A stretch of 50,471 nt of DNA, from positions 1 to 50,471 of the forward strand of contig CALEUG010000013.1 in the NCBI GenBank assembly GCA_937920515.1, written 5' to 3'. Under the pieces are notes generated by a model. The model had not been told where the DNA came from, did not search any database, and worked only from the letters and a program-made list of their open reading frames with translations. Positions 13,014 to 29,406 of this stretch are shown piece after piece. Numbering within the stretch: position 1 is the stretch's first letter; each line of letters opens with the position of its first letter. Source of the DNA: an uncultured bacterium. Lineage in GTDB: Bacteria; Acidobacteriota; Aminicenantia; Aminicenantales; Saccharicenantaceae. The translations under genes were made by a program, and so were the position numbers.

Positions 13014-13910
13014 ATGATAGATAAAAAGAAAATTACCCGGAGAGATTTCATAAGGGGAACTGTCGGCACCACCCTGGGCCTGACCCTGGTGGCTCCCGAC
13101 TGGGTGAAAAAATCTCTGGCTTCGGAAACCGGGCAAAAGACCGCGGGCAAGAGCCTGGTCCTTCTGGTCCGCGACGAAAATGTCCTGGATGACCGGATGA
13201 ACGTTAACAAGAAAATTCTGGCCGGCATGGTTGACAGGATAATTCTGGAATTAACCGGGAAAAAGGACAGCCAACAGGCCTGGCTCTCCTTCTTTAATCC
13301 GCAGGATGTGGTTGGACTTGTTCCCACTCCAATGATGAACCCAACTCACCAGGAACTTCTGGAAGTGATTAAAGAAGCACTGATGGCAATAGGAATTCCG
13401 GAAGCCAATATCCGCAATGCTCAGGGACGAAATGTTGATTTAACTTCTATAACCGCCCTGATTTCTGTTCCGGGCCTGAAAGCTCACTGGCTGACTGGAA
13501 TAGGAACAGTAATAAAAAATTACATTCTTTACTCGGGCGCACCCAGAAACTACCACTATGAAGACAGCGCTAAGCTGGGAGAAATCTGGCATCTGCCCCA
13601 GGTCAAGGGTAAAACCAGGTTGATAATTGTCGATGCCCTGCGCCCCGTCTGCGACAAAGGGCCGCAGTTCGACCCGCGCTACCGCTGGCCCTATAAGGGC
13701 CTGCTGGCCAGCACCGACCCGGTGGCCCTGGATGTCGTTGGCTTGAAAATTATCCAGGCCAAGCGTGATGAGCTCCGGGGCGAACCCTGGCCGATTTCTC
13801 CTCCTCCGATTTGCATCGAAGCCGCCGACACGGTCTACCAGCTGGGTCAGAGCAAGCTGGAAAATATAGAAATAAGAAAAATCGGCTGGGACAAAGAAAT
13901 TCTGATATAA
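13014..13910 (+). CDS. DUF362-like protein with Tat signal
   Basis: The N-terminus carries a twin-arginine signal (TRRDFIRGTVGTTLGL, residues 6-21) and an alanine-bearing cleavage region near residue 38, so a folded protein is exported. The mature part has the DUF362 features LIIVDALRPVCDKGPQFDP (about 203-221) and LLASTDPVALDVVGLKII. DUF362 domains often accompany ferredoxin domains, but no cysteine cluster motif is present here. GAGAGGAGGG lies just before the ATG. It follows the lipoprotein gene closely and ends 80 bases before a convergent gene. Function unknown. Confidence 0.8.
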   Translation: MIDKKKITRRDFIRGTVGTTLGLTLVAPDWVKKSLASETGQKTAGKSLVLLVRDENVLDDRMNVNKKILAGMVDRIILELTGKKDSQQAWLSFFNPQDVVGLVPTPMMNPTHQELLEVIKEALMAIGIPEANIRNAQGRNVDLTSITALISVPGLKAHWLTGIGTVIKNYILYSGAPRNYHYEDSAKLGEIWHLPQVKGKTRLIIVDALRPVCDKGPQFDPRYRWPYKGLLASTDPVALDVVGLKIIQAKRDELRGEPWPISPPPICIEAADTVYQLGQSKLENIEIRKIGWDKEILI

Positions 13911-13913
13911 TCT

Positions 13914-13969
13914 TCAGCCATTTTAAGATGAAGCGCTCTGCCACCAGAGCTCAGAGAGCGAAGGGCTGA
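13914..13969. terminator. Inverted repeat between convergent genes
   Basis: TCAGCC (13914-13919) pairs with GGCTGA (13964-13969), and inside it CGCTCT (13934-13939) pairs with AGAGCG (13955-13960). It lies between the ends of the DUF362-like gene (+) and the RlmN-like gene (-), so it may terminate both. The T-run is weak. Confidence 0.45.
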
Positions 13970-13991
13970 GTTATTTAATCAATCAGCTGTA

Positions 13992-14936: not shown

Positions 14937-14963
14937 CCGGTTCCTCCCTGACTAAGGGTTTGG

Positions 14964-15896: not shown

Positions 15897-15900
15897 GCCT

Positions 15901-16503
15901 CTACTTTTCAATCATATGGATAAACTCCTTAACTTTCATTACCGCCGCACAGGATTTTTTCATAAGGTTAAGAGCTGCTCTGTGTCGGTAGCTATTTCGA
16001 GAACAGCAGGCATCAGACAGTACTATTACCTCAAATCCCCGGTCAAAACCGGCCAGGGCACTGGCCATAAGACATTTATCAGTCTGGACCCCGATCAACA
16101 CCAGTTTCCTTATCCGGCGGGTAAAAAGATAGGAAAGAATATCCCTGTTTTCAAAAATGGAATATGTATACTTGTCGAAAACCTGCACCTTACTAATCTG
16201 TTTCAGCGGTTCAGCCAGATGAAACCATCTGTTCTGACGGCTGATCACTCGGCCGTAAAACCTTAAAAAGTTGTTTCTCTCTGTTTCCGAATTGCTGTGG
16301 CGAGTGGCTAACACGGGAAGGTCACGCTTTTGAAATTCTTCCACCAGCCATTTTATTTTTTCTACGACCCTCCGAGCTGATGATATAAAGGCCGGTGATT
16401 CAGGATGGACAAAGAAATCCTGCCAGTCAATAATACACAGCAGAAATTTGGGCCCGGGAGAAATATCTTTTGATTTTTTATTTTTGAGTCGAAACAGACC
16501 CAC
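15901..16503 (-). CDS. Isochorismatase-like cysteine hydrolase
   Basis: A 200-residue protein of the isochorismatase/nicotinamidase fold. The catalytic triad can be placed at D26 (IIDWQDFF), K111 (FDKYTYS) and C144 in GVQTDKCLMAS. The VQTDKC motif is typical, while the substrate (an amide or enol ether) cannot be deduced. GTG is the start, preceded by an excellent AAGGGAGG site. It is the first gene of the set that continues with the flavoprotein and the RlmN-like protein, so a small redox or salvage pathway is possible. Confidence 0.85.
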   Translation of the reverse strand: MGLFRLKNKKSKDISPGPKFLLCIIDWQDFFVHPESPAFISSARRVVEKIKWLVEEFQKRDLPVLATRHSNSETERNNFLRFYGRVISRQNRWFHLAEPLKQISKVQVFDKYTYSIFENRDILSYLFTRRIRKLVLIGVQTDKCLMASALAGFDRGFEVIVLSDACCSRNSYRHRAALNLMKKSCAAVMKVKEFIHMIEK

Positions 16504-16821
16504 GAGCCACCTCCCTTGAGACCGGGATGGCCTCGCGGGCCTGACATAGTCTCACTTTAAGTTTAACCGGAAGAATAATTTTGTCAAGTCCACCAGGTCG
16601 GCATAAAAAAATAGAGATTTCATCCAGGAAAAAAGGCCATTGTATGCCTCCTCTTGTTTACAGGAAGTCCGGTAAAATGGATTTCTGGAGGCAATGGCCA
16701 GTAGAGATTTGCAAAAACATTAACTGATATATTTCGAACCTGAATCTTTGCAGGACGAGAATTCACCGAAGTCTAAGTTTTCAGCTTAGCCCAGAAATAC
16801 TATCTGACCAACTAAAAAGAT
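16504..16821. other. Intergenic region of 318 bases
   Basis: No gene found. It contains a hairpin element flanked by a short direct repeat at 16612-16710 (listed separately). The rest is AT-rich with no recognisable signal. Confidence 0.4.
16612..16710. repeat. Hairpin element flanked by 9-base direct repeats
   Basis: TAGAGATTT occurs at 16612-16620 and again at 16702-16710. Between them lies an 81-base segment whose arms GGCCATTGTATGCCTCC (16635-16651) and GGAGGCAATGGCC (16687-16699) are complementary apart from a small bulge. This layout recalls a tiny miniature element with a target duplication, or a stable RNA hairpin of another origin. Confidence 0.45.
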
Positions 16822-18258
16822 TTATTTTGTCTCTTTTGCCCATACTGTTTCATAATATTTTCGGACCTGACCTTGCAGGAGCTGCAGCCTTTCCAAAACC
16901 GACTGGTTGCCCCCGGCATATTCAATCATCAGCCGGCCTTCTTCAAAACACATCTCATCATGAAGCGGAAAAACATATCGCAACAAGAAATGAGCATAAT
17001 TAACCAGTCGGAAAGGACCGTAGGCCCGGGGAAGTTCTCCACCAGGAGTTTCAACAGCCACCGACCTCTCGTTCTTGATGGAATCTATAAGGTCCTTAAG
17101 CTCCAACGTGGGCGAGAAGACTATCGTGTAATAACGCCCGAACTGGTCGCTGTCCTCGCAGCCATGGCTGTCGCTTACGCCAACTACCGGCAGTTTCAAT
17201 CCCCTGGCTCGAGCCTCCAGATATTTATTAACCTGTAGATTATTGACATCAACTTCTTGCAGTTCGCTCCAGCCAAAGCCGCTGATAAGTTCCAGCGCAT
17301 CAAATATCCTTTTCTCGATAATGTAATCAACCAGAGCATAAGAAATAAAATTAGCATTTCCGGGTCGCCAGTAAGGATGAGCAAATATCCCGAGCCCACC
17401 TTTCTCGCGGATTTTCTGGAAAGTCCAGACTGACGAGGCATATTGATATTTATCAACGCCTCCCGAAACCGATTTCAGCTTATCCATTATAGCCTGCACT
17501 TCTTTCCGATAAGCAATTTCGTCCCTCTGTATAAGGTCGGTGATGCTCTCCCTGGCCCCGAAGCTTACGAAATGAACAGGATTTTCCGGCGGATGAATCT
17601 CCTCGCCAGGAAAAAGCCGCAAATCGACCGGTAAATCTTTAAAAGCATTAATGGCTTCAAGTGAAGCGGCATAATTACTGTGGTCCGTCAGGGCCGCAAA
17701 GTCCAGCCCTATTCGGCGGCAGGCCCCGGCCACATAGGCCGGGGATTCGTGGCCATCGGACCGAAAGCTGTGCAGATGAAAATCGCCTTTATAAGGGCGA
17801 AGAGCAAAAAGGTCTGGTTTCAGGGAGTATAGATGAAAAGTTCCCACCTGCCGGACTCTGTTTTCTGAATCCACCTCCTCAATTCTTATGATGTGTTCTT
17901 GCTCGCCCTCAAAATATCTTGTGATTTCAAACACATTATCCTCAGGGATGCTCTCCTCCGCTACTGCCTCTTTCCAGCCTGTTTGTAATGCATACCGACC
18001 GACGGGTGTGTACCTGAAACGATACCTGTATCCCGGTTTGGGAAACTTTTCAAAAGGCGAGATAATCCTTACAGTTATGGCACTGTCGGCCGGCACAATG
18101 CGCGGGATTACCTGAAAATACCGGTCACCCCGGTAAGCTTTCAGACCGCCTGGCAAAGCCGGGGTTTTCAGGCTCTGAGCCAGATTAAAGCTTATCAATA
18201 GAAAAAACATGGCAGGCAACAAACCCAAAATCAGAACGCACCTATTAAATTTTTTCAT
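16822..18258 (-). CDS. Exported PHP-domain phosphoesterase-like protein
   Basis: The ATG at 18258 is chosen because GGGAGG lies about ten bases upstream; an in-frame codon 14 codons earlier lacks this. The N-terminus is a signal peptide (MKKFNRCVLILGLLPAMFFL). After an Ig-like beta region of about 140 residues comes a PHP metal site: GDFHLHSFRSDGHES, then ALTDHSNY, GEEIH, FAHPYWRPG and VVGVSDSHG, which together supply the His/Asp/Glu ligands. PHP enzymes hydrolyse phosphoesters, but an exported one could process polysaccharide or phosphorylated substrates outside the cytosol. The C-terminal part (about 390-478) is helical. Substrate unknown. It stands alone upstream of the five-gene exported family. 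Confidence 0.85.
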   Translation of the reverse strand: MKKFNRCVLILGLLPAMFFLLISFNLAQSLKTPALPGGLKAYRGDRYFQVIPRIVPADSAITVRIISPFEKFPKPGYRYRFRYTPVGRYALQTGWKEAVAEESIPEDNVFEITRYFEGEQEHIIRIEEVDSENRVRQVGTFHLYSLKPDLFALRPYKGDFHLHSFRSDGHESPAYVAGACRRIGLDFAALTDHSNYAASLEAINAFKDLPVDLRLFPGEEIHPPENPVHFVSFGARESITDLIQRDEIAYRKEVQAIMDKLKSVSGGVDKYQYASSVWTFQKIREKGGLGIFAHPYWRPGNANFISYALVDYIIEKRIFDALELISGFGWSELQEVDVNNLQVNKYLEARARGLKLPVVGVSDSHGCEDSDQFGRYYTIVFSPTLELKDLIDSIKNERSVAVETPGGELPRAYGPFRLVNYAHFLLRYVFPLHDEMCFEEGRLMIEYAGGNQSVLERLQLLQGQVRKYYETVWAKETK

Positions 18259-18702
18259 GGGTTGCACCTCCCTCCTGGTCAAAGAAATGCTTCCTGACAT
18301 ATCTTATAAGCGGTGAGCTGTTCCTTTTTACCTTTAAATAAAGTGATTTTTTCGACAATTGTCAGTTCAGTTTTCATACTATTATAAATCCAGAAAATAA
18401 TTCAGACTCCAATTCCAGCTCAACCTGCTTCTTAAATTCTCCAATCCTTTAGCCTCGTTTAAATTTTTTCTGCTTACCGGGATCTATGATCCAACCTGAT
18501 CTGCAACTAATAACACTGTTCGCCGGGAGGTTTCTAACCTCTTTCCTGGAACGTTAACTTCATCTAACCTTTAGGGTAAAGCCGGCGGTTTATAATTTGG
18601 GCTAACCACCAATCAAAGGCCAAAATTTTTTCCAACCCTGAATGTTGCCGCTATATTATAGCATTACCTTATCCTCAGACTGTCCGCCCCTGATTTTTGC
18701 CT
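18259..18702 (-). other. Intergenic region upstream of the PHP gene
   Basis: About 440 bases. A perfect TATAAT lies on the minus strand at 18381-18386 with only a weak -35 (TTGGAG, 20 bases away), a possible promoter for the PHP gene. A small palindrome GCTATAATATAGC lies near 18650-18662. No gene, and no clear terminator for the exported family upstream. Confidence 0.3.
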
Positions 18703-20403
18703 CTATTTCTCCTGGTACAGGGCGTAGACAAAGGGTTCGGTGGTGGTCTGCCAGCCCGAAGAGACCCGGCGTCCGTCTCCCAGCAGCCAGGTCACCTGGT
18801 ACTGGTAATTCAGGTCATTTTCGGCATGGACGTATTCGTACTTTCCGAGCAGCGTTTCTCCCGGCAGCAGCTTGACCTCTCCTGTCTTCTCCCGGTCGGC
18901 AAACCTGTTCTTGAAGGTCACCGAAATCAGCTTGAGGTTATAAGCCCTGACGTTTTCTTCGTCAGCGATTATGTCAATCTGGCGGTAACGATGGGGCGGG
19001 AACAGGTTAATGGCAGCTTCTTCGCTCCTGGTCCAGGGGCCTTCCACTTTAATTCCGCCGACAAAACTCCAGACGGTCTTATATTCATAGCTCAACCAGG
19101 TAGCCCCCTCCCCCAGCCTGGGATAGACAAAGGACAGCATGTTTCCCCGCTCGGCAAAGGTCTGGGCATTGAAGATAACATCCCGGGTGGTCGGCTCGCC
19201 TGTCCTGTGGGTTTTCTTAAAGCTGACAGTCACGAAGTTGATGTATTTTCTGAAAGTCTCAAAATCTTCACCATCCAGGATGGCATAGACCACCCGGTCC
19301 TGAAGGTCGGGGTCATCCAGGTTGATTATGTCATAGACTTTCTTATTATTTTTGAACTTCCTGAGCACCTCACCGATGCTGGCGTCCATCGGGCCGGTGT
19401 CCCTCTCCTGGCGCAGGCGCTTGGTCAGGTTGATGGTCCAGTCGTCGGTGCGGCTGACCTTTTTTCTGGTGGTGCTGACGCCATAAGGCCGGTCCTTCTG
19501 CTTTTCTTCTTCGCCTTCTTTACCTTCGTCAGCCTCGGGCAAATCCAGCCTGGTATCGAACATTTCCCGCATGATGGTATCGACCAGGCTCTGCATCAGG
19601 GCATCCAGGTTCTGGTCTTCGCCGGTGATATCAACTTTAACCGCCCCCCTGGACCTCATCTCATCCTTGATCTCCCGCAGTTCTCCGGTTCCTGTCTGTA
19701 TATACCAGGTCCAGATACCCAGCTTTTTTTTCTTGTATATTTTCCATTTGCTGTACTGGTCAAAGTACTCACGCACCTTGGACCAGTGAATGGTGGCCGT
19801 GGCCTGGTATTTCGGGGTCAGTCCCTCGTAGGTCATCTCAAACCTGACGCTGACCGGATAAGTCGGCTGGCGCAGGGCTTCTTCCAGGAAGGTGGCACCT
19901 TCAGGGGTAACGGCAATAGATACCGATACTTCAGAGCCAGAAATCAGCGGAGCCTTGCCTTCGCCGATTATCTTGCGGGTGAAGGCTCCTCCTTCTCCCA
20001 CCGCTGCCGAAACCACCAGGAAAGAGCCTTTTTTAAAAACCAGGGGGCCCTTGATGGTAGCCCTGGGATTTATCTTCAGAAGTTCCTGCCGGACCCTGTT
20101 CAACTCCTGCTCATCCAGACCGTATTTCACGAAGAAATGCAGAATTCCGCCTTTTGATTCTTCCTTTCCAGTTTTGGTATATTTCAAAAATGTCAGCTTG
20201 GGCGTGCCGTCCGGCCAGTAAGCCAGGCGCGGCTGGTTGGGCATGTAATAATAGATATTGGGGTCGGCATGGTCTTTGAACAGGATGGCATTGGCCACCT
20301 GGAGCGGGGCCGAGTCCAGTTCAACCTCGGCTGCGGCATACGAAACCAGGCTCAGTATCCATAAGCCAGCCATTATCAATGTGACTGTTTTTTTCCGGCA
20401 CAT
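18703..20403 (-). CDS. Exported family protein A (two-module, unknown)
   Basis: Fifth and last gene of the paralogous operon; 566 residues with signal peptide (hydrophobic core LIMAGLWILSLVSYAAA, cleavage near residue 25). The N-terminal module begins FKDHADPNIYYYMPNQPRL and continues with GGILHFFVKYGLDEQEL, GEGKAPLISGSEVSVSIA and MTYEGLTPKYQATATIHW. A charged acidic linker (about residues 292-310) follows. The C-terminal module holds INLDDPDLQDRVVYAILDGE, WLSYEYKTVWSFVGG and ends YQYQVTWLLGDGRRVSSGW before EPFVYALYQEK. Predominantly beta structure is expected. AAAGGAG precedes the ATG. No known enzyme or transporter motif was found. Confidence 0.85.
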   Translation of the reverse strand: MCRKKTVTLIMAGLWILSLVSYAAAEVELDSAPLQVANAILFKDHADPNIYYYMPNQPRLAYWPDGTPKLTFLKYTKTGKEESKGGILHFFVKYGLDEQELNRVRQELLKINPRATIKGPLVFKKGSFLVVSAAVGEGGAFTRKIIGEGKAPLISGSEVSVSIAVTPEGATFLEEALRQPTYPVSVRFEMTYEGLTPKYQATATIHWSKVREYFDQYSKWKIYKKKKLGIWTWYIQTGTGELREIKDEMRSRGAVKVDITGEDQNLDALMQSLVDTIMREMFDTRLDLPEADEGKEGEEEKQKDRPYGVSTTRKKVSRTDDWTINLTKRLRQERDTGPMDASIGEVLRKFKNNKKVYDIINLDDPDLQDRVVYAILDGEDFETFRKYINFVTVSFKKTHRTGEPTTRDVIFNAQTFAERGNMLSFVYPRLGEGATWLSYEYKTVWSFVGGIKVEGPWTRSEEAAINLFPPHRYRQIDIIADEENVRAYNLKLISVTFKNRFADREKTGEVKLLPGETLLGKYEYVHAENDLNYQYQVTWLLGDGRRVSSGWQTTTEPFVYALYQEK

Positions 20404-20476
20404 TTAAGTCTCCTTTTTAATATTTTTATTCCTGCTGTTCACTTTATCTTTTAATCTGCGTCCCTTTAGAAATCCC

Positions 20477-23218
20477 CTATCTGCTAAACACGGCATAGAT
20501 GAAGGGCCCTTCCCGGTTGACCCAGGGTTTCTCAATTTCCTTGCCATCCAGCGTCAGCCAGATGGCCCGGTAGCTGTAACCCGGTTTGCCCTCTTCATGC
20601 ATGTAGGTGTAGTTAACCTGCAGCGGGTCCCCCTTATCGTAATTTATCACCACTTCTTTCAGGATGTCTTTGCCGAAAATGTTGTGCTTGACCTGTATGG
20701 CCACCGCCTTGACCTTGTTCTGCAGAATGTTGTCCTCGTCAACCGAAATCTCTATGGTCCGGCGCCTCACCGGTGGAGTCAGGGTCAGCACCGAATCCGA
20801 GGTTTTCACCCAGTCACTCTCCCACTCCACCCCGCCGTAAAGTGCCCATTTGGTTTTATACTCGTAATTCAGCCACTCGGTCGAAGCCTCATTCACCCGG
20901 CTGTACTTATAGCTCAGGCGGTTGCCCCTGTCGGCAAACTGCTGCTCGAAAAATTTAACCTCTCCGGTCTGCACCGCTCCGCCCATCCTCTGCTTCCGGA
21001 ATATCACCGACACGCTGTTGACATAGTTTTTGAAGTCCTCAGCATCCTGGCCGTCCAGAATCACCTCCACCGTCCTCTCCTGGAAGGCCGGGTCATCCAG
21101 GCTGACCACCGTGAAAAACCTTTTGTCCTCGCCATACTTCCGGTAAATTCCGCTGATGTTGCCGCTCATCACTATTTCCCGGTCTTCCCGCAGCCGCCGT
21201 CTCATGTCCACCTCGTAGCGACCGGAAAGTTTTGTCCGCTTAAAGCTGTAACCAAGCTGGACGTTGAAAAGAGGTTTTGCTTCCGGAGCGGCTGGGGTGG
21301 CCTGAGAAGCCGTTGCCTGTCCGGCGGTTGTGGCCGGAGGGGTCGTCGAGCCGGTGCCGGCCGCCCCTGTGGTTGCCTGGCCGCCTGAAGTCTGCTGGGA
21401 GGCCGCCTGTCCGCCTGTCTGCCCTGATGTGCCTGTGGCTTGCTGGCCCAGAGCCCCACGGACGTCACCGGCCTGGGTTGCACCGGTAGACCTTTCCGTC
21501 CCCGTAGTGGTCTGCTGGGCACCGGTAGCAGTAGCTCCTGTCTGCTGTTGTACCTGCGGTTCTGGCTTTTCCTGAGGTTGAGGAGCTGGTAAACTGGCTA
21601 TTTTTGCCTTAAGATTTATGACAACTCCAACCACGTGTTGTTTAAATCCATCAAGATTGGCCTCAGCCGGGACTTCCTTGTATTCCCTTAAAAATCCTTC
21701 CAGCAATTCCACGGCTCTCTCGTAGTTCTCTCGCCCGTTTTTTTCCTGGGTATTACCCTGATCTTCAAAACAGTATCCGGCAGAAACCAGAGCCCGTGGA
21801 TTTCTAACTAATCCATAACTTAATAGAAACTCTTCACCGGCCTCAAGATATTTGCCTGATTCTCTCAGCTGTTTTGCTTTATTAAACATTTCCCGGGCCC
21901 TGTCTATATCAGAAATTTTTCCAGAAACGCCCTGCCTCTCATCTTGATATAAATTCTTTTCTTCGGCCAGCTGAACGAACTTTTTATAATGATTTTCGGC
22001 CAGGTCGAAATCGTAAAGATATTTTTCATAGAAAAATCCAGCTCTAAAATAATAAATGGGGTCAGGACAGGCAACAAACGCTTTTTTGAACTGGTCAATG
22101 GCCTCAACAAATTTTTTCTCCGTCGCCAGAGCCAGGCCCTTTTGATAGAGCTGGTCCGCCCGGCGCTTATCAGCCGAACTGCAATCTATCCCCTGATTAG
22201 TAGCCTGCTGTTCTTGCTGCAACCGGACTCTCGGTCCCCCGGACGTTACTTCAAAATTCAGCGGGTCTGGGGAATAATACTCCATCCTTTGGCTCCCCTC
22301 GCTCAGGCTGTCGGCCCAGTTGTATTTAAGTTCTCTGATACTTTTTAACCACAGAAAAGCACTGTGGCCAGAAGGCCCTGTTGTCCCTGTTCCGATCGGC
22401 ACCTTGTCGCACATCAGCTGAAGGATATGATTGTAGGCTGTTTCCAGAAGCTTCTGCATGTTCTCGTTCTCACCCACCACCTCCAGCTGGATCGCTCCCT
22501 TTTGCCTTAATTCCTCCAGCGTGGCCCCGAGGTCTGCTCGCAGCTTAACCACCTTCACCGTCCCTTCCACCGCGGCCTTTATGTCGTGCTGGGTATAAAC
22601 CTTATCCCAGTCCACCTTCAACTTGGCCTGAAAGGCCGGGGTTATACCCGAAAACTTCAAAACATACTGAACCGAAATATCCGAGGCTGGGTTCTTGAAA
22701 GATTCCCACAGAAGAGAGGCGCCCTCTTCAGTCAGAGCTATCGATACCGCCGCTTTCTGGCCCGGCAACACCGGCGCCTTGCCTTCCCCCACTATCCGCC
22801 GGTTGAAAATGCCGTCTTTTCCGGCCGTGGCCGAGATGATCTGAAAGGTCGCTTCCTTGAAGGGCACCGGTCCAGCCAGCTTGGCCTGAGGATCTATACC
22901 TTTAAGCGCCGATTCGGCCGAGCTTAATTCCCCGCTGGTGAATCCCCAGGTCACCAGAAAATGAATCACCCCGCCCTTAGTCGTGCTGTCGGTCCTGGTG
23001 TATTTAATAAAAGAAAACTCTGGAGTTCCGTCCCGTTTAGTGGCCAGACGTGGCTCCCCCGGCACATAGTAATACTTATGAGAGTCAGCGTGGTCGCGGT
23101 AAAATACAAACCTGCCCGCCTGAACCACCTCCTCCACCGCCACTTCGGCTGCCAGGTAAAGCCCGGTCTGCAATATCAGAGTCAAACCAGCCAGCAGGAA
23201 AACAGATTTCTTTTTCAT
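20477..23218 (-). CDS. Exported family protein B with TPR and low-complexity insertion
   Basis: A 913-residue member with the same ends as A and D: signal peptide, then YRDHADSHKYYYVPGEPRL and GGVIHFLVTWGFTSGEL, and a C-terminal module (646-913) with VSLDDPAFQERTVEVILDGQ, WLNYEYKTKWALYGG and GPFIYAVFSR. Between the modules is an insertion absent from A and D: helical TPR-like repeats at about 345-543 (YQKGLALATEKKFVEAIDQF is one), then a Thr/Gln/Gly/Ala/Pro-rich stretch at 544-645. AAAAAGGAGAG lies before the ATG, which overlaps the stop of a short upstream frame (ATGA). The insertion suggests a protein-protein interaction role within the family; function unknown. Confidence 0.87.
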   Translation of the reverse strand: MKKKSVFLLAGLTLILQTGLYLAAEVAVEEVVQAGRFVFYRDHADSHKYYYVPGEPRLATKRDGTPEFSFIKYTRTDSTTKGGVIHFLVTWGFTSGELSSAESALKGIDPQAKLAGPVPFKEATFQIISATAGKDGIFNRRIVGEGKAPVLPGQKAAVSIALTEEGASLLWESFKNPASDISVQYVLKFSGITPAFQAKLKVDWDKVYTQHDIKAAVEGTVKVVKLRADLGATLEELRQKGAIQLEVVGENENMQKLLETAYNHILQLMCDKVPIGTGTTGPSGHSAFLWLKSIRELKYNWADSLSEGSQRMEYYSPDPLNFEVTSGGPRVRLQQEQQATNQGIDCSSADKRRADQLYQKGLALATEKKFVEAIDQFKKAFVACPDPIYYFRAGFFYEKYLYDFDLAENHYKKFVQLAEEKNLYQDERQGVSGKISDIDRAREMFNKAKQLRESGKYLEAGEEFLLSYGLVRNPRALVSAGYCFEDQGNTQEKNGRENYERAVELLEGFLREYKEVPAEANLDGFKQHVVGVVINLKAKIASLPAPQPQEKPEPQVQQQTGATATGAQQTTTGTERSTGATQAGDVRGALGQQATGTSGQTGGQAASQQTSGGQATTGAAGTGSTTPPATTAGQATASQATPAAPEAKPLFNVQLGYSFKRTKLSGRYEVDMRRRLREDREIVMSGNISGIYRKYGEDKRFFTVVSLDDPAFQERTVEVILDGQDAEDFKNYVNSVSVIFRKQRMGGAVQTGEVKFFEQQFADRGNRLSYKYSRVNEASTEWLNYEYKTKWALYGGVEWESDWVKTSDSVLTLTPPVRRRTIEISVDEDNILQNKVKAVAIQVKHNIFGKDILKEVVINYDKGDPLQVNYTYMHEEGKPGYSYRAIWLTLDGKEIEKPWVNREGPFIYAVFSR
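21284..21589 (-). repeat. Low-complexity Thr/Gln/Gly/Ala coding stretch in protein B
   Basis: Encodes about 102 residues made chiefly of T, Q, G, A, S and P, with repeated words such as TTG, QQ and TGA. It is probably a flexible linker between the TPR part and the C-terminal module. Open frames seen on the other strand arise from this composition. Confidence 0.8.
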
Positions 23219-23412
23219 AGTTGCTCTCCTTTTTCCCGGTCTGCGGACCCGCTTAAGCCTTCAAACCGGCAAATCAGATTGTTTATAAACGGGCCCGTGG
23301 TATTACCTGTACCCGGGTCCGGATTAGCCGTCAGCAACCAATCTATCTTGAAAGTAATGAACATGTAATTAAGTTTTTGAAGCCCCGAACTTAAAGAGTT
23401 TTTCAACTTCAT
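23215..23412 (-). CDS. Short coupled frame resembling the family's C-terminal end
   Basis: A frame of 65 codons between genes C and B. TGGAGGG stands just before its ATG, and its TGA overlaps the ATG of B (ATGA), so translational coupling is possible. Its centre reads FKIDWLLTANPDPGTGNTTG followed by PFINN, which can be aligned with the last strand of A (VTWLLGDGRRVSSGWQTTTE then PFVYAL) and of D. It could be a remnant of a further family member whose upstream part is lost, or a chance frame that aids translation of B. The resemblance is over about 25 residues only. Confidence 0.35.
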   Translation of the reverse strand: MKLKNSLSSGLQKLNYMFITFKIDWLLTANPDPGTGNTTGPFINNLICRFEGLSGSADREKGEQL

Positions 23413-23425
23413 TCCCTCCAGAAGC

Positions 23426-24448
23426 CTAACTTTCCTTTATAACCAGCTCATAGGCGGACAGGTCCAGAAAGGCATTATCCCCTTCCTGCCAGTCGCCCCT
23501 TTCTGAACGTCCATCGGTATAGACCCTGGTAACCCGGTAGCGGTATTTTCCGCCTCTGGCTTCCGGAACGTTAAATTCCAGGTTGTATTGCGGCTGGCTG
23601 TCTGCTGAGAAAGTCACCAGCCTGACGTCTTTCTGACCCCGGGCGGTAGTGCTTTCCACCTCAACCGCCATCTTGACCATGTCGCCGTTCAGCCCGTTGA
23701 CAAAATCAAAGCAGATCACGCTCATCCTGCGAAAATTAAAAGAGAACTTCCGGGCCAGGTTAATTACCTGAAAAAGGTCCGGAAATTGCTCCATCGACAC
23801 GGGCACATCCAGACTCAGCCTGCCCGCTCTCTCTCCCGGCTGCAGTTTTCCTTCCTGGTCAATTTCATATCCGCCATAGCTAAAGGAACACTCCAGGCTG
23901 AGGCCGGCCGCTTTCTTTTCTTCATAGATTTTCCAGAGATATGAGGCCGAAGAGGCACTCAGGGGAAAGGTAAAACTTTTTCCCGTCCAGAGAATCCTGT
24001 TCGACCCCGGAGCCTTTTTATCGCCAGCAGCTGTTTCCCGAGTCTCCGGGTTTTCCAGTCCGGTATAGCTCAGACTGATATCGATGGTTTCCACCTGGAC
24101 CGGTCGGTATTCAAACTGTTCTCCCTTTTCTCTTTTCAATATTTCCGTTTCGTTGCTGAACTCCACCGAAAGAGTCAGCACCCCGCCGGCCGTGGTTCTG
24201 GGCTCGGCCGTTCCCTGGTCTTTAACATAAACATACTTGTAGAAAAAGAAATTGGGCCGGCCGAAAACCTGGCTCAACTGGAGACGGGTGGGTACGTAGT
24301 AAAAAATCCCGGGGTTCCTGTGGTCCGGGTAAACTATAATCCGCCCGGCTACCGTTTCCGGTCTGGTGAGTATCGGGTCAGCCCGCAGTCCCGGCGCGAA
24401 CAGCAACCATAAAATAACCGCTACCCCGGCCGCTAACCTGAATCGCAA
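23426..24448 (-). CDS. Exported family protein C (short, divergent)
   Basis: 340 residues, the shortest full member. The start is TTG, six bases after AAAGGAG and 15 bases after the stop of D. A signal peptide (MRFRLAAGVAVILWLLFAPG) leads to PDHRNPGIFYYVPTRLQL, the family's N-terminal motif. The C-terminal end, YRYRVTRVYTDGRSERGDW and LDLSAYEL, corresponds to the last part of the longer members. The middle is shorter and the GEGKAP block is missing. It looks like a reduced or specialised partner of A, B and D. Unknown function. Confidence 0.82.
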   Translation of the reverse strand: MRFRLAAGVAVILWLLFAPGLRADPILTRPETVAGRIIVYPDHRNPGIFYYVPTRLQLSQVFGRPNFFFYKYVYVKDQGTAEPRTTAGGVLTLSVEFSNETEILKREKGEQFEYRPVQVETIDISLSYTGLENPETRETAAGDKKAPGSNRILWTGKSFTFPLSASSASYLWKIYEEKKAAGLSLECSFSYGGYEIDQEGKLQPGERAGRLSLDVPVSMEQFPDLFQVINLARKFSFNFRRMSVICFDFVNGLNGDMVKMAVEVESTTARGQKDVRLVTFSADSQPQYNLEFNVPEARGGKYRYRVTRVYTDGRSERGDWQEGDNAFLDLSAYELVIKES

Positions 24449-24463
24449 ATATTTCTCCTTTAC

Positions 24464-26170
24464 TCAGAGCTTTTCGTAGTAGGCATAAATAAAAGGGTCG
24501 GTAGCTTTTTTCCAGCCGGAGGAAACCCTGGTGTTGTTCTTGAACAGCCAGGTGATGTTGTATTCATACTCCAGGTTGTTCGGCTCGTGGAAATACACAT
24601 AGTTGATATTCAAGGGTTCGCCTTTGCGCAGCACAACCTCTTTCTGCAGCTGCCGGCCGAAATTTTTGTGCCTGAACTGAACGGCCACCCTGATAATGCC
24701 ATTCTCGTTCAGGTTTGCTTCTTCAGCCAGGACTTCAAGATAACGATACTTGTGAGGCGGAGTCAGGGTTATGACCGGCTGGCTGGTCTTGATCCAGTCT
24801 CCGGCCACTTCCAGACCACCGACATAGCTCCAGATGGGCCTGTATTCATATTCCAGCCATTTATCAGTCCGGTCGCCTTTACGTCTGTATTTCAAAGAAA
24901 GTTTATTTCCATTCTGACCAAACTTAGTCCGGTCGAAAATCAGGTCCTCGGTGATGGACTTCATGTCGGCACTTTCATATTCCTTCTTGAAAGTGATTCC
25001 GGCAAAATTAAGGTACTGGGAAAAGGTCTGAAAATCTTCACCGTCCAGGATGACGTTTATGGTTCGTTCTTCAAAAGTCGGGTCATCCAGGTCGACCACG
25101 CTGAAAAACTCGATTTCTTTTCCGTATTGTTTATAAAGTCCGCTGATATTTCCGGTCAGGGGTACTTCCCGCTGGTCGCGCTTGCGCCGGGTGAGGTCCA
25201 CGGTATACTTGCCGCTGAGTTTAACCTGCTTGCGGAAAAAACCTAAATGAGCCTGCCCGAAAAGCTTGCCCAGCCAGTTAGAGCCGGTGGTGGCCTGGGC
25301 CTTACCGATGTCTTCCGGCTTGACCGGCTTGGCCTCAAACATCATCCGGGTGATGGTATTGTAAGCCGTATCCAGGAGCTCATCCATCCTGGCCTCCTCG
25401 CCAATCACCTCCAGCTTGATAGCGCCCTGCTCTCTCAGTTCAGAATAGATTTTGTGTATCTGGGCACTGACCAGGAAACCCCCGACGTTGGCCTTGAATT
25501 CCCTGTGGTCGTAAACTTTATCCCAGTCCACGGTCAGCAGGGCCTGATAGGCCGGGGTCAGCCCCTGGTAGGTCATGACGAACTGGACCGAAATATCCGA
25601 AGTGGGTTTCTTGAATGATTCCATGAGCAGCGTTGAGCCTTCTTCGGTCAGGGCAATGGAGATTGCGGCTTCCGAGCCGGCCAGAAGCGGGGCCTTTCCA
25701 GTGCCGACAACCCTACGGCTGAATATTCCACCCTCGCCGGCCGAGGCTGAAATGATGTGAAACTCTCCCGAAGTGAACATCACCGGTCCGATTAATTTCC
25801 CGTCCTTATCAATTTTTTTAAGTTCCTGCTCGATTTTTTCCAGTTCTTCTCCGGTCAGTCCGAAGGTGCACAGGAAATGCAGGATACCGCCGGTTATTTC
25901 CTTCCCGGTTCTGAGGTACTGGATGAAACTGAACTTGGGCTTGCCGTCAGGCCAGGTGGCCACCCTGGGTGACAGCGGCATATAGTGATAACCGTGTTCG
26001 TCGGCATGGTCCCGGAACAGCAGGGCGTTTGTTACCTGGATCGGTTCCCTGTCCAGCAGCACTTCGGCCTGAAGGCCAATGGCTGCAGCCGTTAGAGCCA
26101 GGACAGAAAACATTAATAAAATTCCTGCCTTTTTAATTTCAATTTTTATTTCATTCAATGGAGTCCACAT
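24464..26170 (-). CDS. Exported family protein D (two-module, unknown)
   Basis: 568 residues, the closest relative of A by layout. Signal peptide near residues 14-35, then FRDHADEHGYHYMPLSPRV, GGILHFLCTFGLTGEEL, GTGKAPLLAGSEAAISIALT and MTYQGLTPAYQALLTVDWDK. The C-terminal module has LSGKYTVDLTRRKRDQREVP, DLDDPTFEERTINVILDGED, WLEYEYRPIWSYVGG and the ending YEYNITWLFKNNTRVSSGW before DPFIYAYYEKL. AAGGAGG precedes the ATG. Compared with A, the acidic linker is replaced by a short neutral one. No cysteine-rich, metal-site or nucleotide-binding motifs are visible. Confidence 0.87.
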   Translation of the reverse strand: MWTPLNEIKIEIKKAGILLMFSVLALTAAAIGLQAEVLLDREPIQVTNALLFRDHADEHGYHYMPLSPRVATWPDGKPKFSFIQYLRTGKEITGGILHFLCTFGLTGEELEKIEQELKKIDKDGKLIGPVMFTSGEFHIISASAGEGGIFSRRVVGTGKAPLLAGSEAAISIALTEEGSTLLMESFKKPTSDISVQFVMTYQGLTPAYQALLTVDWDKVYDHREFKANVGGFLVSAQIHKIYSELREQGAIKLEVIGEEARMDELLDTAYNTITRMMFEAKPVKPEDIGKAQATTGSNWLGKLFGQAHLGFFRKQVKLSGKYTVDLTRRKRDQREVPLTGNISGLYKQYGKEIEFFSVVDLDDPTFEERTINVILDGEDFQTFSQYLNFAGITFKKEYESADMKSITEDLIFDRTKFGQNGNKLSLKYRRKGDRTDKWLEYEYRPIWSYVGGLEVAGDWIKTSQPVITLTPPHKYRYLEVLAEEANLNENGIIRVAVQFRHKNFGRQLQKEVVLRKGEPLNINYVYFHEPNNLEYEYNITWLFKNNTRVSSGWKKATDPFIYAYYEKL

Positions 26171-26242
26171 CTCTGCCTCCTTGTTTTCCTGAACTTTTCT
26201 AAAATTTTTGTGTTATTCGCAGTTTCCCTCGCCGATTTAAAA

Positions 26243-28438
26243 CTATCTACCGAAAAGGCTTTTTATATGATACGGGCCTATGGTCAGGTCCAGGCTATCG
26301 GCCACGGTTTCCCAGCTGGCTGACTCGGCTATCCGCCCGTCTTTAAGGACTGCTTTGACCTTATACTCAAAATTGAACTGTCCTCCGCTGCTGAGCGGCA
26401 GGTAAACTGTCACCAGCCCTTTGAGCTTGTTCTTATTAAAATCAAGACCGGTCACCAGTCCGCTCCGGCCCTGGGCGCTGAGATAGGGTGAACGAATTTC
26501 AAGTCGAACTTTCTCCACCTCCAGCGGGCTGTCATAAGCAGCCGGGGCAAAGACGCTGGCCAGCACCTCCACCTGGAGTTTTCTCATCCTTTCTATATAC
26601 GAGACCACCTCAATGTTGCCCCAGATCTTATCCAGGCAGGGCTGGCAATTAAAATCTGGTTCAATCTCCATCCAGAAGCTGCGAGCATATTGTTTGAAGA
26701 AAGCATCCACTTTAGGACTGGCCGGCTGCCCGACCTCATCCCTGGTCAGGAGTTCCTCGGCCTCCCTGACTTTATCCCTGTCCAGTTTCTTCTCCAGTTC
26801 ACCCTTGATAGCTCCCAGCCCCTTTTCTAACAGAGAACTCTTCTTCTTGGGAGCCGGGGGCGCGGTGGGGAAAGCTTTCCGGTATTCAGCCAGAAGCAAG
26901 CCCCTGGGAGCAAACTGAACTTCCAGGTCCAGGGCCTGCCCGGGCTGGATAACGGTTTCCTTCAGACATTTAAGGTTCTTATAGACATCCTCTCCGTTCG
27001 GCAGGCGGAAACGCAGGCTGACCGAAGAAACCTTGATCGGAAAATCCGACAGGTTCCTGACGCCGTGGAGATAAAGCACGGAATTCTTTTCGTCGATGGA
27101 GAAACCCAGCTCTTCCAGGCCCGAATACCAGCGGCCGGTAAAATATTTCAGGCCAACCCTGATGGGGATTTCTCTTTCGACCGTTCCTGACTTGATTTTC
27201 ATTCCAGCCGTTAATCCTTCTTTTTCCAGCAGGGGCTTGAGTTCGGCCAGGGTGTCGGGAGTCATGGCAATGTTGATGGGAAGTTCTGTTTCCAGCGAGC
27301 CAAAGCTTGGAATCCTGATGTTTTCTATTTCCCAGTCTTCCCAGCCCTGCATGTCTATTATGGCGGCTTCATCATAGGGCAGCGACCGGAGAACTGCCTG
27401 CTGACCCCTGGCCGCTTTCAGGGCTTCCTCCATAAGCTTAACATCAGCCGGGTCAACGCTGGCTCTGAGGGTCATGGTGGTTTTAACCCTCTGGTCGTTG
27501 GTCCAGACGGCGCTGATACGATAACCGCCGGCGGCCTTGTCTCTGACCAGGTTTATTTCCCTGGGAAGATAATAATAGGTATTCGGTTTTTCATTATCCT
27601 TGAAAACCCGGTTGAGCAGGGTTAACGGTTCTTCAATGTTCAGGGGGCCGATATCCTCTACCTTGTGACGGGCTGGGGCCACGCCCGTCGGGTTCAGGGG
27701 GATGGTTTTAATGACTGCGGGTTTTACCAGCTGCAGGTCTAACTGACCGGCCGGTCTCTGCTGGGTGCTGGCGGGCACTCTGGTTTTGCCCGGGTCAGCC
27801 ACGGCGCCAACTTTTTGCACAGCCAGCGGAGCATATATGGCCGCCGAGGCCCAGACCGCCCAGTCCTGGACTGACCGCCCGGCTGCAGACACCGACAGCC
27901 GGAAATCCACAGTGGAGCCGGCATAGGGTGACAGATCAACCGATATCTGGTCAAGCTGGCCGTCAGGTCTGGCCGGTAGCTCGGCTAACATTACCGCTCC
28001 ACCGCCTGACGAGCCGGCGAAAGACACATAAAATTTAACGCCATCGGACTGGGTGGCCCCCTTAAGAAAGCCCACAGTGGCCTTAAAGGTAGCGCCGGCC
28101 GGTATCTTGACTCCAGGATATATTCCGATTATGTTCCCGTCGTTTTTCCACTCAGGATGAGTTTGAAGCACCAGGGCGTAGGTCTGGCCATCTTCCAGGG
28201 CCGTGTTGTTAACATGCCGGGCAAAGCCGCGGCTGTCACTATCGGCGCCATTCCAGGGAAGTTCGCCGGCCGGGGATATAGACCGGTACCACTTCGCTTC
28301 CGGAGCTTTTTTGACGAAATCATAAATAACAACGTCGGCTGCTTTCAAGCCTGGAAAAACAGACAGGCTTAAAAATATCAAGAGGCAAATTGGCAGATAA
28401 AACAACATATTTCCCCTTCTGGCTGGCTTTAAACGCAT
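26243..28438 (-). CDS. Exported family protein E with an additional N-terminal domain
   Basis: First gene of the operon. The ATG at 28438 follows AAAGGAG by seven bases; an in-frame codon 20 codons upstream lacks a ribosome site. The signal peptide ends near residue 34 (VFPGLKAA). An additional beta-rich domain of about 170 residues follows (with YALVLQTHPEWKN, GVKFYVSFAGSSGGG and DFRLSVSAAGRSVQDWAVWA), resembling a jelly-roll carbohydrate-binding type; that is inference. The family motif appears later as FKDNEKPNTYYYLPREINL, and the end FNFEYKVKAVLKDGRIAES with LDLTIGPYHI matches C. A lysine/glutamate-rich helix lies about 540-590. Total 731 residues. Function unknown. Confidence 0.83.
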   Translation of the reverse strand: MRLKPARRGNMLFYLPICLLIFLSLSVFPGLKAADVVIYDFVKKAPEAKWYRSISPAGELPWNGADSDSRGFARHVNNTALEDGQTYALVLQTHPEWKNDGNIIGIYPGVKIPAGATFKATVGFLKGATQSDGVKFYVSFAGSSGGGAVMLAELPARPDGQLDQISVDLSPYAGSTVDFRLSVSAAGRSVQDWAVWASAAIYAPLAVQKVGAVADPGKTRVPASTQQRPAGQLDLQLVKPAVIKTIPLNPTGVAPARHKVEDIGPLNIEEPLTLLNRVFKDNEKPNTYYYLPREINLVRDKAAGGYRISAVWTNDQRVKTTMTLRASVDPADVKLMEEALKAARGQQAVLRSLPYDEAAIIDMQGWEDWEIENIRIPSFGSLETELPINIAMTPDTLAELKPLLEKEGLTAGMKIKSGTVEREIPIRVGLKYFTGRWYSGLEELGFSIDEKNSVLYLHGVRNLSDFPIKVSSVSLRFRLPNGEDVYKNLKCLKETVIQPGQALDLEVQFAPRGLLLAEYRKAFPTAPPAPKKKSSLLEKGLGAIKGELEKKLDRDKVREAEELLTRDEVGQPASPKVDAFFKQYARSFWMEIEPDFNCQPCLDKIWGNIEVVSYIERMRKLQVEVLASVFAPAAYDSPLEVEKVRLEIRSPYLSAQGRSGLVTGLDFNKNKLKGLVTVYLPLSSGGQFNFEYKVKAVLKDGRIAESASWETVADSLDLTIGPYHIKSLFGR

Positions 28439-28857
28439 TATTTTCTCCTTTCGTCCCTGAATTAAGGCGGTCTCAGACTTTAAGTGGCAGTCAGCCACCT
28501 CAAGACGGAGAAACTAATTTGATGGATATGGGAGGATAATTCAAGATAGGCTCTGGGAAAAAATGGACCTTGACTTTATCTCTGAAGAATCGCCCCGCAC
28601 CATCGGCTGTCATCTTCATTAACAAGATTTTAGGATGTTAACACGCCCTGGAAATCCTGTCAAGAAAATTTTGTCTCACATGAGGTGCTGGTAGTTTTAT
28701 TCAGACGGCTTTCAGGGCTGAGAAAGAATGCTATTTCTTTTACTTAATCAATTACCCGTCAGAAAGGACAATCAGGTTCAGGATGCAGGGCTTATCTATT
28801 TGCGGCAATGGATTAATTTATGGGGCCCATCAAGCAAAATCGGGAAGAATTAATGGG
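28439..28857 (-). other. Intergenic region upstream of the five-gene exported family
   Basis: About 420 bases with a strong promoter (listed separately) and an untranslated leader of about 190 bases. A short GTGGC/GCCAC hairpin lies near 28482-28496. No gene is visible. Confidence 0.4.
28635..28663 (-). promoter_or_regulatory. Promoter of the exported paralogue operon
   Basis: On the minus strand a consensus TTGACA (28658-28663), 17-base spacer and TAACAT (28635-28640). The expected start near 28628 leaves about 190 bases of leader before gene E. It is the only strong promoter-like sequence I found upstream of the five genes. Confidence 0.65.
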
Positions 28858-29406
28858 TCAGGCCAGGCCCAGGTCCCGGTCTATACCCTGCATGGACTGC
28901 AGGCATATCATCAAGAATTCATCCAGGCTTAAACCCAGGTTGGCGCACTGCTCTATTTCTTCCCTTCTGGCGCCCCGGGCGAAATGCTTTTCTTTATAGC
29001 GCCTCTTGAGAAAATCCAGGTCCACTGCCTTTAGCTTTTTCTCCGGATGCATCAGCGTGGCCGCGATAATCAGTCCGGTGGTCGGGTCGGCCGAGTAAAT
29101 TGACCAGTCCATGGCACTCTGACAGGGCACGCGGCCGGCATGAGCCTTGATGGCCTGGATGACCTCAACCGGCAAATTGTATTTTTCCAGCATCTTAACA
29201 GTTTCGGTGGTGTGAAGCTCGGGGCTCTTCTCGGTTAATTCATAATCCAGGTCGTGCAGCAGGCCGGCCAGTCCCCAGAGCTCCTCATCTCCACCCAGGC
29301 GTCGGGCCAGTCCCCTCATGCAGGCTTCCACCGCAAGGCAATGCTTGACCAGGTTCCTGTTATGCAGGTGTTGCTTGACCAGTTCTAAGGCTTCTTCTCT
29401 GTTCAT
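28858..29406 (-). CDS. HD-domain protein, probable metal-dependent phosphohydrolase
   Basis: 182 residues with the HD signature: an early His in LVKHCLAVEACM, LLHDLDYE (about 49-56) with the HD pair, and AIKAHAG later. SADPTTGLIIAATLMHPEK contains a late Asp/His set usual for this sub-family. Relatives hydrolyse phosphomonoesters or nucleotides; the exact substrate is unknown. AAAAAGGAG precedes the ATG. The gene follows the exported deacetylase-propeller gene by 19 bases, so both may be one transcript. Confidence 0.87.
   Translation of the reverse strand: MNREEALELVKQHLHNRNLVKHCLAVEACMRGLARRLGGDEELWGLAGLLHDLDYELTEKSPELHTTETVKMLEKYNLPVEVIQAIKAHAGRVPCQSAMDWSIYSADPTTGLIIAATLMHPEKKLKAVDLDFLKRRYKEKHFARGARREEIEQCANLGLSLDEFLMICLQSMQGIDRDLGLA

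What the first reader, a model, noticed from the sequence alone, without database searches (positions are those of the whole stretch)
18703..28438. Operon of five exported paralogues that belongs to no family I recognise
Seen directly: each of five consecutive minus-strand proteins has a signal peptide and the same N-terminal motif: FKDHADPNIYYYMP (A), YRDHADSHKYYYVP (B), PDHRNPGIFYYVP (C), FRDHADEHGYHYMP (D), FKDNEKPNTYYYLP (E). A, B and D also share GEGKAP/GTGKAP blocks and a (L)DDP...ILDG(E/Q)D block, and all five end with a YxYxV...DGR-like strand. The spacing between genes is small and one strong promoter lies upstream. Inference: a family that expanded by tandem duplication and works as a multi-part assembly outside the cytoplasm, perhaps at the cell surface. 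This is the strongest candidate for an undescribed system in the window.
Basis: partly seen in the sequence, partly recalled or inferred. Interest (0 to 1): 0.88.

Follow-up and report, generated by a model that had tools for sequence, protein, structure and literature searches.

The report
Exported five-protein family operon, function unknown
Bacteria of the Aminicenantes group carry a compact five-gene block whose exported proteins share a previously unnamed building block, and relatives in other phyla keep similar sets, often next to wall- or protein-cutting enzymes, which points to an undescribed multi-part machine outside the cell.

Summary
Five adjacent minus-strand genes (E-D-C-B-A, 18703-28438) encode Sec-exported proteins. 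A, B and D are clear paralogues; C shares their N-terminal module (hhalign 97.7%; 8.6e-10 in a genome search); E is a probable, weaker relative carrying a CBM-like domain. A-E match no Pfam, NCBIfam or PADLOC model above cut-off; profiles find no PDB relative, and Foldseek finds only generic Ig-like sandwiches for D. Gene order is conserved in 8 of 8 relatives' loci tested; dN/dS is 0.05-0.10. In four operon-less congeners the genes that flank the block elsewhere lie 0.9-2.6 kb apart, so the block comes and goes as a unit. Related sets (E-like, C-like, 4-5 A/B/D-like) occur in Holophagae, Thermoanaerobaculia and a Bacteroidota isolate; positions 1 and 3 each form one cross-phylum clade, so the subunits are ancient. 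The N-module also occurs without leader peptide in Bacteroidota, Alphaproteobacteria and Deinococcus; 7 of 15 clusters outside the window's type have an adjacent enzyme (muramidase, amidase, chitosanase, caspase, papain, PLD-like). Most likely: an extracytoplasmic multi-subunit, glycan- or wall-directed assembly that takes exchangeable enzymes in relatives. Assembly and function are inferred, not shown.

The parts
26243..28438 (-). Gene E: exported; CBM-like beta domain, then a region with the FKDN..YYYLP motif, C-terminal CxxC and Y-x-Y strand
27827..28336 (-). E residues 55-224 (numbered from GTG 28498): CBM/galactose-binding-like jelly roll
   Evidence: pLDDT blocks mostly 62-90 in a model of mean 57; Foldseek: CBM6, 15, 16, 61 and Eph ligand-binding domains TMt about 0.5-0.63, CBM4 0.34-0.44; NPCBM E 0.085, below cut-off
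27563..27604 (-). E motif FKDNEKPNTYYYLP
   Evidence: kept as D..YYxP in far E-like proteins
24464..26170 (-). Gene D: exported; N-module plus Ig-like beta domains; the best conserved of the five in distant relatives
25316..26065 (-). D residues 36-285: the shared N-module (bounds from the model and the alignment)
23426..24448 (-). Gene C: exported; part of the N-module plus C-terminal beta region
20477..23218 (-). Gene B: exported; N-module, about 370-aa insert with TPR and T/Q/G-rich linker, then the C half as in D
22061..22159 (-). TPR-like stretch in B (residues 354-386)
   Evidence: TPR_1 1.7e-4, 21.7 bits against a cut-off of 27.8
18703..20403 (-). Gene A: exported; N-module plus C half as in D
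28635..28663 (-). Promoter-like site upstream of E
   Evidence: consensus match only
28858..29406 (-). HD-domain gene: flank of the variable slot (not part of the system)
13014..13910 (+). DUF362 gene: other flank of the slot (not part of the system)

Best explanation
The block encodes the subunits of one extracytoplasmic hetero-oligomeric assembly. Shown: leaders, a shared N-module in A-D, Ig-like beta domains behind it in D (predicted model), a CBM-like domain in E (predicted model), fixed gene order, purifying selection, gain/loss as a unit, and ancient subunit classes. Inferred: the N-module is the common joining part that lets A, B, C and D pack together; E, with the CBM-like domain, is the end that binds glycan (own envelope or external polysaccharide); B's TPR insert docks a partner. 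In relatives the same module is encoded with a wall- or protein-cutting enzyme, so the general design would be a glycan/wall-directed scaffold with an optional, exchangeable enzyme. The window's version has no such enzyme in the block and would be the bare, exported scaffold.
For: E-D-C-B-A in order in all 8 relatives' loci put into (chosen for contig length). dN/dS A 0.05, B 0.10, C 0.09, D 0.05, E 0.07 against L080, with dS 0.85-1.63. In G009 only the five genes lie between the HD and DUF362 genes; in operon-less G013, G005, G012 these two are 0.9-1.0 kb apart and in G015 2.6 kb. Tree of 36 proteins: positions 1 and 3 each one clade (UFBoot 100) from Holophagae to Agaribacillus; the window-type A, B and D classes each 100. 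D model pLDDT 82; E CBM-like domain. Enzyme passing the Pfam cut-off beside the family in 7 of 15 other clusters. The only PF11860 muramidase of G637 and of G720 lies in the cluster; 2 of 3 caspases in G539; 1 of 2 Amidase_2 in G420, the only (sub-cut-off) one in G657. By eye, the amidases of the two exported-type sets have a leader and the enzymes of five leaderless clusters do not.
Against: No interaction was predicted or measured. pTM of D is only 0.50 and Foldseek gives no specific fold. E's kinship is marginal. No enzyme lies in the window's block or in its relatives of the same type, and none was found at L098, L099, L100. I picked which neighbours to scan by eye and named the enzyme families after seeing them, so there is no fair chance estimate. 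The same families also occur away from the clusters: PF11860 in G428; Amidase_2 in G283, G539, G637 and a second one in G420; caspases in G283 (1), G420 (5), G428 (3 matches) and a third in G539. The block is missing from 10 of 18 congeners (some genomes incomplete), so it is not essential. A glycan ligand is a guess from fold.
Confidence: 0.45

Rival explanations
1. Periplasmic or surface polysaccharide capture complex of a sugar-fermenting bacterium (works like a Sus-type system): the Ig-like proteins and the E CBM hold glycan for uptake.
For: E CBM-like domain; the host genus is Candidatus Saccharicenans (name-matched contigs of congeners; that it ferments sugars is recalled from its name); a TIG/NHL lipoprotein-like protein beside the Agaribacillus set.
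Against: No TonB receptor, SusD or glycosidase among the 19 window genes that I scanned with Pfam, two on each side of the block included; the only ABC ATPase of transport type seen (6608-7720, TOBE) sits beside MoeA. In G009 the slot holds only E-A. Leaderless relatives beside caspases do not fit.
Confidence: 0.2
2. Antagonism or defence system: the set is a carrier for exchangeable toxins (wall hydrolases, proteases), and the window's copy has lost or separated its payload.
For: Muramidase with PG_binding_1, GH46, Amidase_2, caspase fused to PG_binding_1, papain and PLD-like genes next to the family in unrelated bacteria; patchy occurrence; variable slot; leaderless sets with leaderless muramidase.
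Against: No immunity-like gene was recognised (not searched for systematically), no injection machinery in what was scanned, no phage match, PADLOC empty for the 9 family members tested; purifying selection in every subunit; no payload in the window.
Confidence: 0.2
3. A set of independent secreted Ig-like adhesins that are neighbours after old duplications, with no common complex.
For: The top Foldseek match of D is a repeat of a large adhesion protein, the rest generic; no interaction data.
Against: Fixed order and unit-wise gain/loss, subunit classes kept across phyla, C-like and E-like genes kept alongside in the far exported sets.
Confidence: 0.15

Closest known systems
Carbohydrate-binding modules (CBM6/15/16/61) and NPCBM (PF08305)
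   Same: Predicted fold of E residues 55-224, weak NPCBM match
   Different: Below Pfam cut-off; only one domain of one subunit; no glycosidase attached; the same search also ranks Eph ligand-binding domains as high
Ig-like/FN3 bacterial adhesins and phage Ig-repeat proteins
   Same: Ig-like beta sandwiches in the C half of D
   Different: Query-normalised TM below 0.2, target-normalised at most 0.30; the conserved N-module has no counterpart found; in my judgement any tandem Ig chain would give such matches
EAD1-trypsin-STAND conflict systems ('System 3' of Kaur et al. 2020, PMC7159879; search passages and section 32 read)
   Same: Trypsin-like, EAD1 and STAND-like genes lie just upstream of the Paracoccus set; the paper also names lysozyme- and papain-like wall enzymes
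   Different: No NucA core in the Paracoccus annotation (PLSDB gene table, incomplete); section 32 mentions no multi-paralogue Ig-like set; the window has none of these parts
Extracellular contractile injection systems / T6SS (recalled)
   Same: Carriers with exchangeable wall-hydrolase cargo
   Different: No sheath, tube or spike family in the members or neighbours that were scanned; PHROGs without a convincing match for 15 N-modules

Membership tests
Pfam / NCBIfam families | Score above curated cut-off for A-E | tested here: not met
   best in Pfam TPR_1 in B, 21.7 bits vs 27.8; in NCBIfam MamA in B, 24.3 vs 200
PADLOC defence proteins | Match of family members at E 0.01 | tested here: not met
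   A-E and 4 far members, none
PHROGs | Match of the N-module | tested here: not met
   15 N-modules (window A and D among them; B, C, E not sent), three single matches, best E 0.017
Shared N-module family (this report) | A, B, C, D matched by one N-module profile in a whole-genome search | tested here: met
   A 1.7e-84, B 2.1e-62, C 8.6e-10, D 1.5e-90 in G000 (A and D rows are in the profile)
Shared N-module family (this report) | E matched by the same profile | tested here: inconclusive
   not at 1e-4; hhalign 32%, 5e-4
NPCBM / CBM (domain of E) | Fold | tested here: met
   TMt about 0.5-0.63 for CBM6/15/16/61, on a partly low-confidence model
NPCBM / CBM (domain of E) | Profile above cut-off | tested here: not met
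   13.3 vs 23.9 bits
NPCBM / CBM (domain of E) | Glycan binding | not testable with these tools
   needs a binding assay
Sus-type polysaccharide locus | TonB receptor and SusD partner beside it | tested here: not met
   not among 19 window genes scanned; the rest of the window was not scanned
Phage tail / contractile injection system | Sheath, tube or spike proteins in the operon | tested here: not met
   (not every neighbour scanned)
EAD1 / System 3 conflict system | NucA endonuclease plus trypsin core | tested here: not met
   absent from the window block; no NucA named beside the Paracoccus set

The most novel reading that the evidence does not exclude
A previously unknown class of multi-subunit, wall-directed assembly, spread over at least four bacterial phyla, built on one N-module plus Ig-like arms, with an E-type glycan-binding subunit and an exchangeable enzyme slot (muramidase, amidase, chitosanase, caspase, papain, PLD-like). 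It exists in a Sec-exported form (window) and in a leaderless form that would have to leave the cell another way or act inside it.
Probability: 0.22. Interest if true: 0.92.

Novelty: categorically new. Interest (0 to 1): 0.74.

Why it matters
It gives a handle on an unnamed protein family that recurs as ordered multi-gene sets in several phyla, including an isolate (Agaribacillus) and plasmids of Paracoccus, Pararhizobium, Ruegeria and Deinococcus strains, so it can be tested at the bench. If the enzyme-slot reading is right, it is a new kind of modular extracellular or conflict machine. If it is only a surface complex, it still defines a conserved envelope structure of the uncultured Aminicenantes.

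Tried and rejected
Mobile-element reading: no tRNA at the slots searched; no integrase-like gene noticed among the ORFs (no profile search for it); no match in the phage collection for D or for one leaderless member; no relative in viral contigs for the same two queries, a search that reaches close relatives only. Kept only as a variable slot. Polysaccharide deacetylase/PQQ gene 29426-31717 as part of the system: rejected, because a homologue stays beside the HD gene in operon-less G013, G005 and G012. Long plus-strand ORFs inside the genes (such as 18697-20157): taken as shadow ORFs. A 1280-aa D fusion in G028: E lies in another frame there, so no fusion. E model (mean pLDDT 57, pTM 0.31): only the CBM-like part was used. 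Foldseek hits of D to complement, pore-forming toxins and adhesins: TMq 0.07-0.19, TMt at most 0.30, not interpreted. Trypsin/EAD1/STAND genes in Paracoccus may belong to a neighbouring system (about 130 bp gap), and tyrosinase and a second trypsin follow the set; of its enzymes only the PLD-like gene inside the set is counted. The subtilase near the G283 cluster is not next to a member and is not counted. The C39-like gene in Pararhizobium and the HELMH gene in Agaribacillus rest on my reading only (Pfam empty) and are not counted.

Dropped rows and limits: one L098 protein split over two frames was left out of the tree. Not every neighbour of the 15 clusters was scanned with Pfam; 'none' means none found among those scanned or recognised by eye. 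Of the 10 operon-less congeners, 9 were searched for the slot (G001 was not); 4 show the two flanks together, G003 has only a 39% DUF362 relative far away, G004 and G017 have no DUF362 hit, G016 has the two on different contigs, and G007 has neither. Of the 8 operon-bearing congeners, G018 holds the block in other surroundings, and in several the contig ends inside the block. One row of alignment A1 was translated wrongly (24% identity); A1 was not used further. In one search the wrong table columns were printed; corrected.
Full report
Where it is. The window is a whole contig (C13) of a 2.56 Mb, 91.7% complete genome. Contigs of congeners G014, G009 and G011 have the same lengths (126,560; 240,768; 234,914) as named Candidatus Saccharicenans contigs in L079, L081 and L080, so the host is inferred to belong to that genus. 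NCBI places it in Candidatus Aminicenantota; the genome search treats it as one phylum with Thermoanaerobaculia and other Acidobacteria, because G200 and G415 ('same phylum') have the contig lengths of L100 and L099.

The genes. Five minus-strand genes run E (26243-28438), D (24464-26170), C (23426-24448), B (20477-23218), A (18703-20403), with gaps of 72, 15, 207 and 73 bp. E most likely starts at ATG 28438, which has a Shine-Dalgarno sequence. All five have a Sec-type leader with an A-x-A-like end and no lipobox cysteine, read by eye; the script test covers A-D. dN/dS against the L080 orthologues is 0.05 to 0.10, with dS 0.85-1.63, that of B being high.

Kinship among the five. A, B and D are paralogues over their full length; B is D with an insert of about 370 aa holding a TPR-like stretch and a low-complexity linker. 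C shares the first part of the N-module (blastp 3e-6; hhalign 97.7%, 1.6e-12). E is weaker: hhalign 32%, E 5e-4, not found by the N-module profile at 1e-4. In favour of E: the D..YYxP motif is kept in E-like proteins at the same operon position in L099, L100, G420 and Agaribacillus. In E the motif lies at residue 299 of the 751-aa reading, after a CBM-like domain.

No known family. Pfam and NCBIfam give nothing above cut-off for A-E and PADLOC nothing for A-E and four far members. PHROGs gives nothing convincing for 15 N-modules, window A and D among them. PDB sequences give nothing convincing for D alone or for profiles A7 (A/D type), A8 (E) and A10 (N-module); C and B were not sent on their own. 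D folds with mean pLDDT 82 and pTM 0.50: leader, N-module (36-285), then Ig-like beta domains. Foldseek against PDB and BFVD finds only generic beta-sandwich chains, TMq 0.07-0.19 and TMt at most 0.30. The E model is poor (57), but residues 55-224 match CBM6, 15, 16 and 61 and Eph ligand-binding domains (TMt about 0.5-0.63; CBM4 0.34-0.44), below a few whole-ectodomain hits with low TM. Papers: six searches of an open-licence library listed 9 papers, none of which names such a set in title or abstract start; two were opened.

Conservation as a block. D homologues occur in 15 of 60 related genomes, 8 of 18 of the same genus. E-D-C-B-A lie in that order in all 8 loci put into: four of the genus, three of the family, one (G158) farther (A is cut by the contig end in L086); one congener has two B genes. 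In G009 the five genes, and only these, lie between an HD gene and a DUF362 gene. In operon-less G013, G005 and G012 the same two genes are 0.9-1.0 kb apart, in G015 2.6 kb, with other small genes or none between them. These are 4 of the 9 operon-less congeners searched; the other five do not show the pair together (lost, unassembled or apart), and operon-bearing G018 holds the block in other surroundings. No tRNA was found at the slots. So the block is gained or lost as a unit in a variable slot. In the window the slot also holds four more genes between A and the DUF362 gene.

Wider family. A profile of A/B/D finds 11 of 396 genomes of the phylum; the N-module profile finds 12 of 396, own genome included in both, and 7 of 395 Bacteroidota, the query genome included (5 of 395 with profile A7). 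The named scan found Holophagae FeB_10, Acidobacteria Ww181, Thermoanaerobaculia PIR-30 and Agaribacillus aureus BMA12, the last a Bacteroidota isolate. Holophagae, Ww181 and Thermoanaerobaculia each have an E-N-like gene, a TIG-like gene, an E-C-like gene, a C-like gene and 5, 5 and 4 A/B/D-like genes. G420 and Agaribacillus have an E-like gene, a C-like gene and 4. Plasmids of Pararhizobium, Paracoccus, Ruegeria and Deinococcus carry members annotated as hypothetical. No phage record matched two queries and no viral contig.

Ancient subunits. A tree of 36 proteins (one split L098 protein left out) puts operon position 1 of all five far sets in one clade and position 3 in another (UFBoot 100 each). 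Positions 2 and 4 form a joint clade with unclear inner order (66, 38), so for them position does not predict class with support. A, B and D of the window's type are each a group at 100, and together at 100 apart from the far sets. The distinct subunits are thus old and each kind is kept, which fits parts of one machine better than recent tandem copies.

Two forms. Of 53 members tested, 28 of 31 from exported-type sets have a hydrophobic leader ahead of the N-module; the three exceptions are the position-3 proteins of L098, L099 and L100, whose module starts 114-266 residues in. 0 of 22 from the other sets (G539, G637, G720, G806, G283, Pararhizobium, Paracoccus, Deinococcus) have one. For G657 and Ruegeria the grouping rests on this same test. 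That the leaderless ones are cytoplasmic is an inference.

Enzymes next door. I looked at 15 clusters outside the window's type (G807 and G385 set aside, G158 put with the window's type). In 7 an enzyme gene over the Pfam cut-off lies on the same strand in the run of genes: G420 Amidase_2, G637 PF11860 muramidase with PG_binding_1, G806 GH46, G539 two caspases; G720 muramidase with PG_binding_1 and papain, Deinococcus caspase fused to PG_binding_1; Paracoccus PLD-like. Two more are weaker: G657 Amidase_2 below cut-off and Ruegeria PG_binding_1 without enzyme. In six I count none: L098, L099, L100, G283, Agaribacillus, Pararhizobium; their neighbours were only partly scanned. In G637 and G720 the muramidase is the only one in the genome, but G428 has one away from its cluster. 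Amidase_2: 6 matches in 11 genomes, 2 of them in clusters (G420, G657). Caspase: 12 matches, 2 in a cluster (both G539). By eye the two amidases have a leader, as their sets do, and the enzymes of G637, G720, G806, G539 and Deinococcus have none, as their sets have none. Neighbours and families were picked after looking, so I give no p-value. The window block itself has no enzyme.

Reading. The best-supported account is an extracytoplasmic multi-subunit assembly with the N-module as the common joining part and E as the glycan-binding part; relatives add an exchangeable enzyme aimed at walls or proteins. Shown: what carries a call number above. Inferred: complex formation, joining role, glycan target, and any link between the enzymes of relatives and the window's block. 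The papers by Kaur et al. (PMC7159879: passages and section 32; PMC8195603: passages only) describe EAD1/trypsin/STAND conflict systems that resemble the upstream neighbours in Paracoccus but, in what I read, not this family.

Noticed in passing
window 13910-28858 and L181-L185: Variable chromosomal slot between a DUF362 gene and an HD gene; different congeners hold different small genes or the five-gene block there.
   Followed up: yes
window 16822-18300 (-): PHP/CehA-McbA-like metallohydrolase with a leader, directly downstream of A inside the slot; no homologue in the congeners' stretches.
   Followed up: no
window 29426-31717 (-): Protein joining a PdaA-like polysaccharide deacetylase to a PQQ/BamB-type propeller; found beside the HD gene with or without the block.
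   Followed up: partly
L120 15226-16830: Caspase-family protein fused to a C-terminal PG_binding_1 domain on a Deinococcus plasmid, next to a family member.
   Followed up: partly
L071 10249-12015: Pararhizobium gene between family members that looks like a C39-type peptidase by eye; no Pfam match.
   Followed up: no
L101 14022-15425: Protein with a leader and a HELMH motif right after the Agaribacillus set; no Pfam match.
   Followed up: no
L077, L154, L155 (one contig of G283): At least seven family members over about 39 kb on both strands, with a subtilase gene in between.
   Followed up: partly
window 26636-26647 (E, -): C-x-x-C pair in E, kept in the E or E-like proteins of other Aminicenantes aligned, G420 and Agaribacillus, absent from G158, L099 and L100; possible metal or disulphide site.
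   Followed up: no
window 47596-49758 (-): Full-length peptidase S46 gene near the contig end.
   Followed up: no
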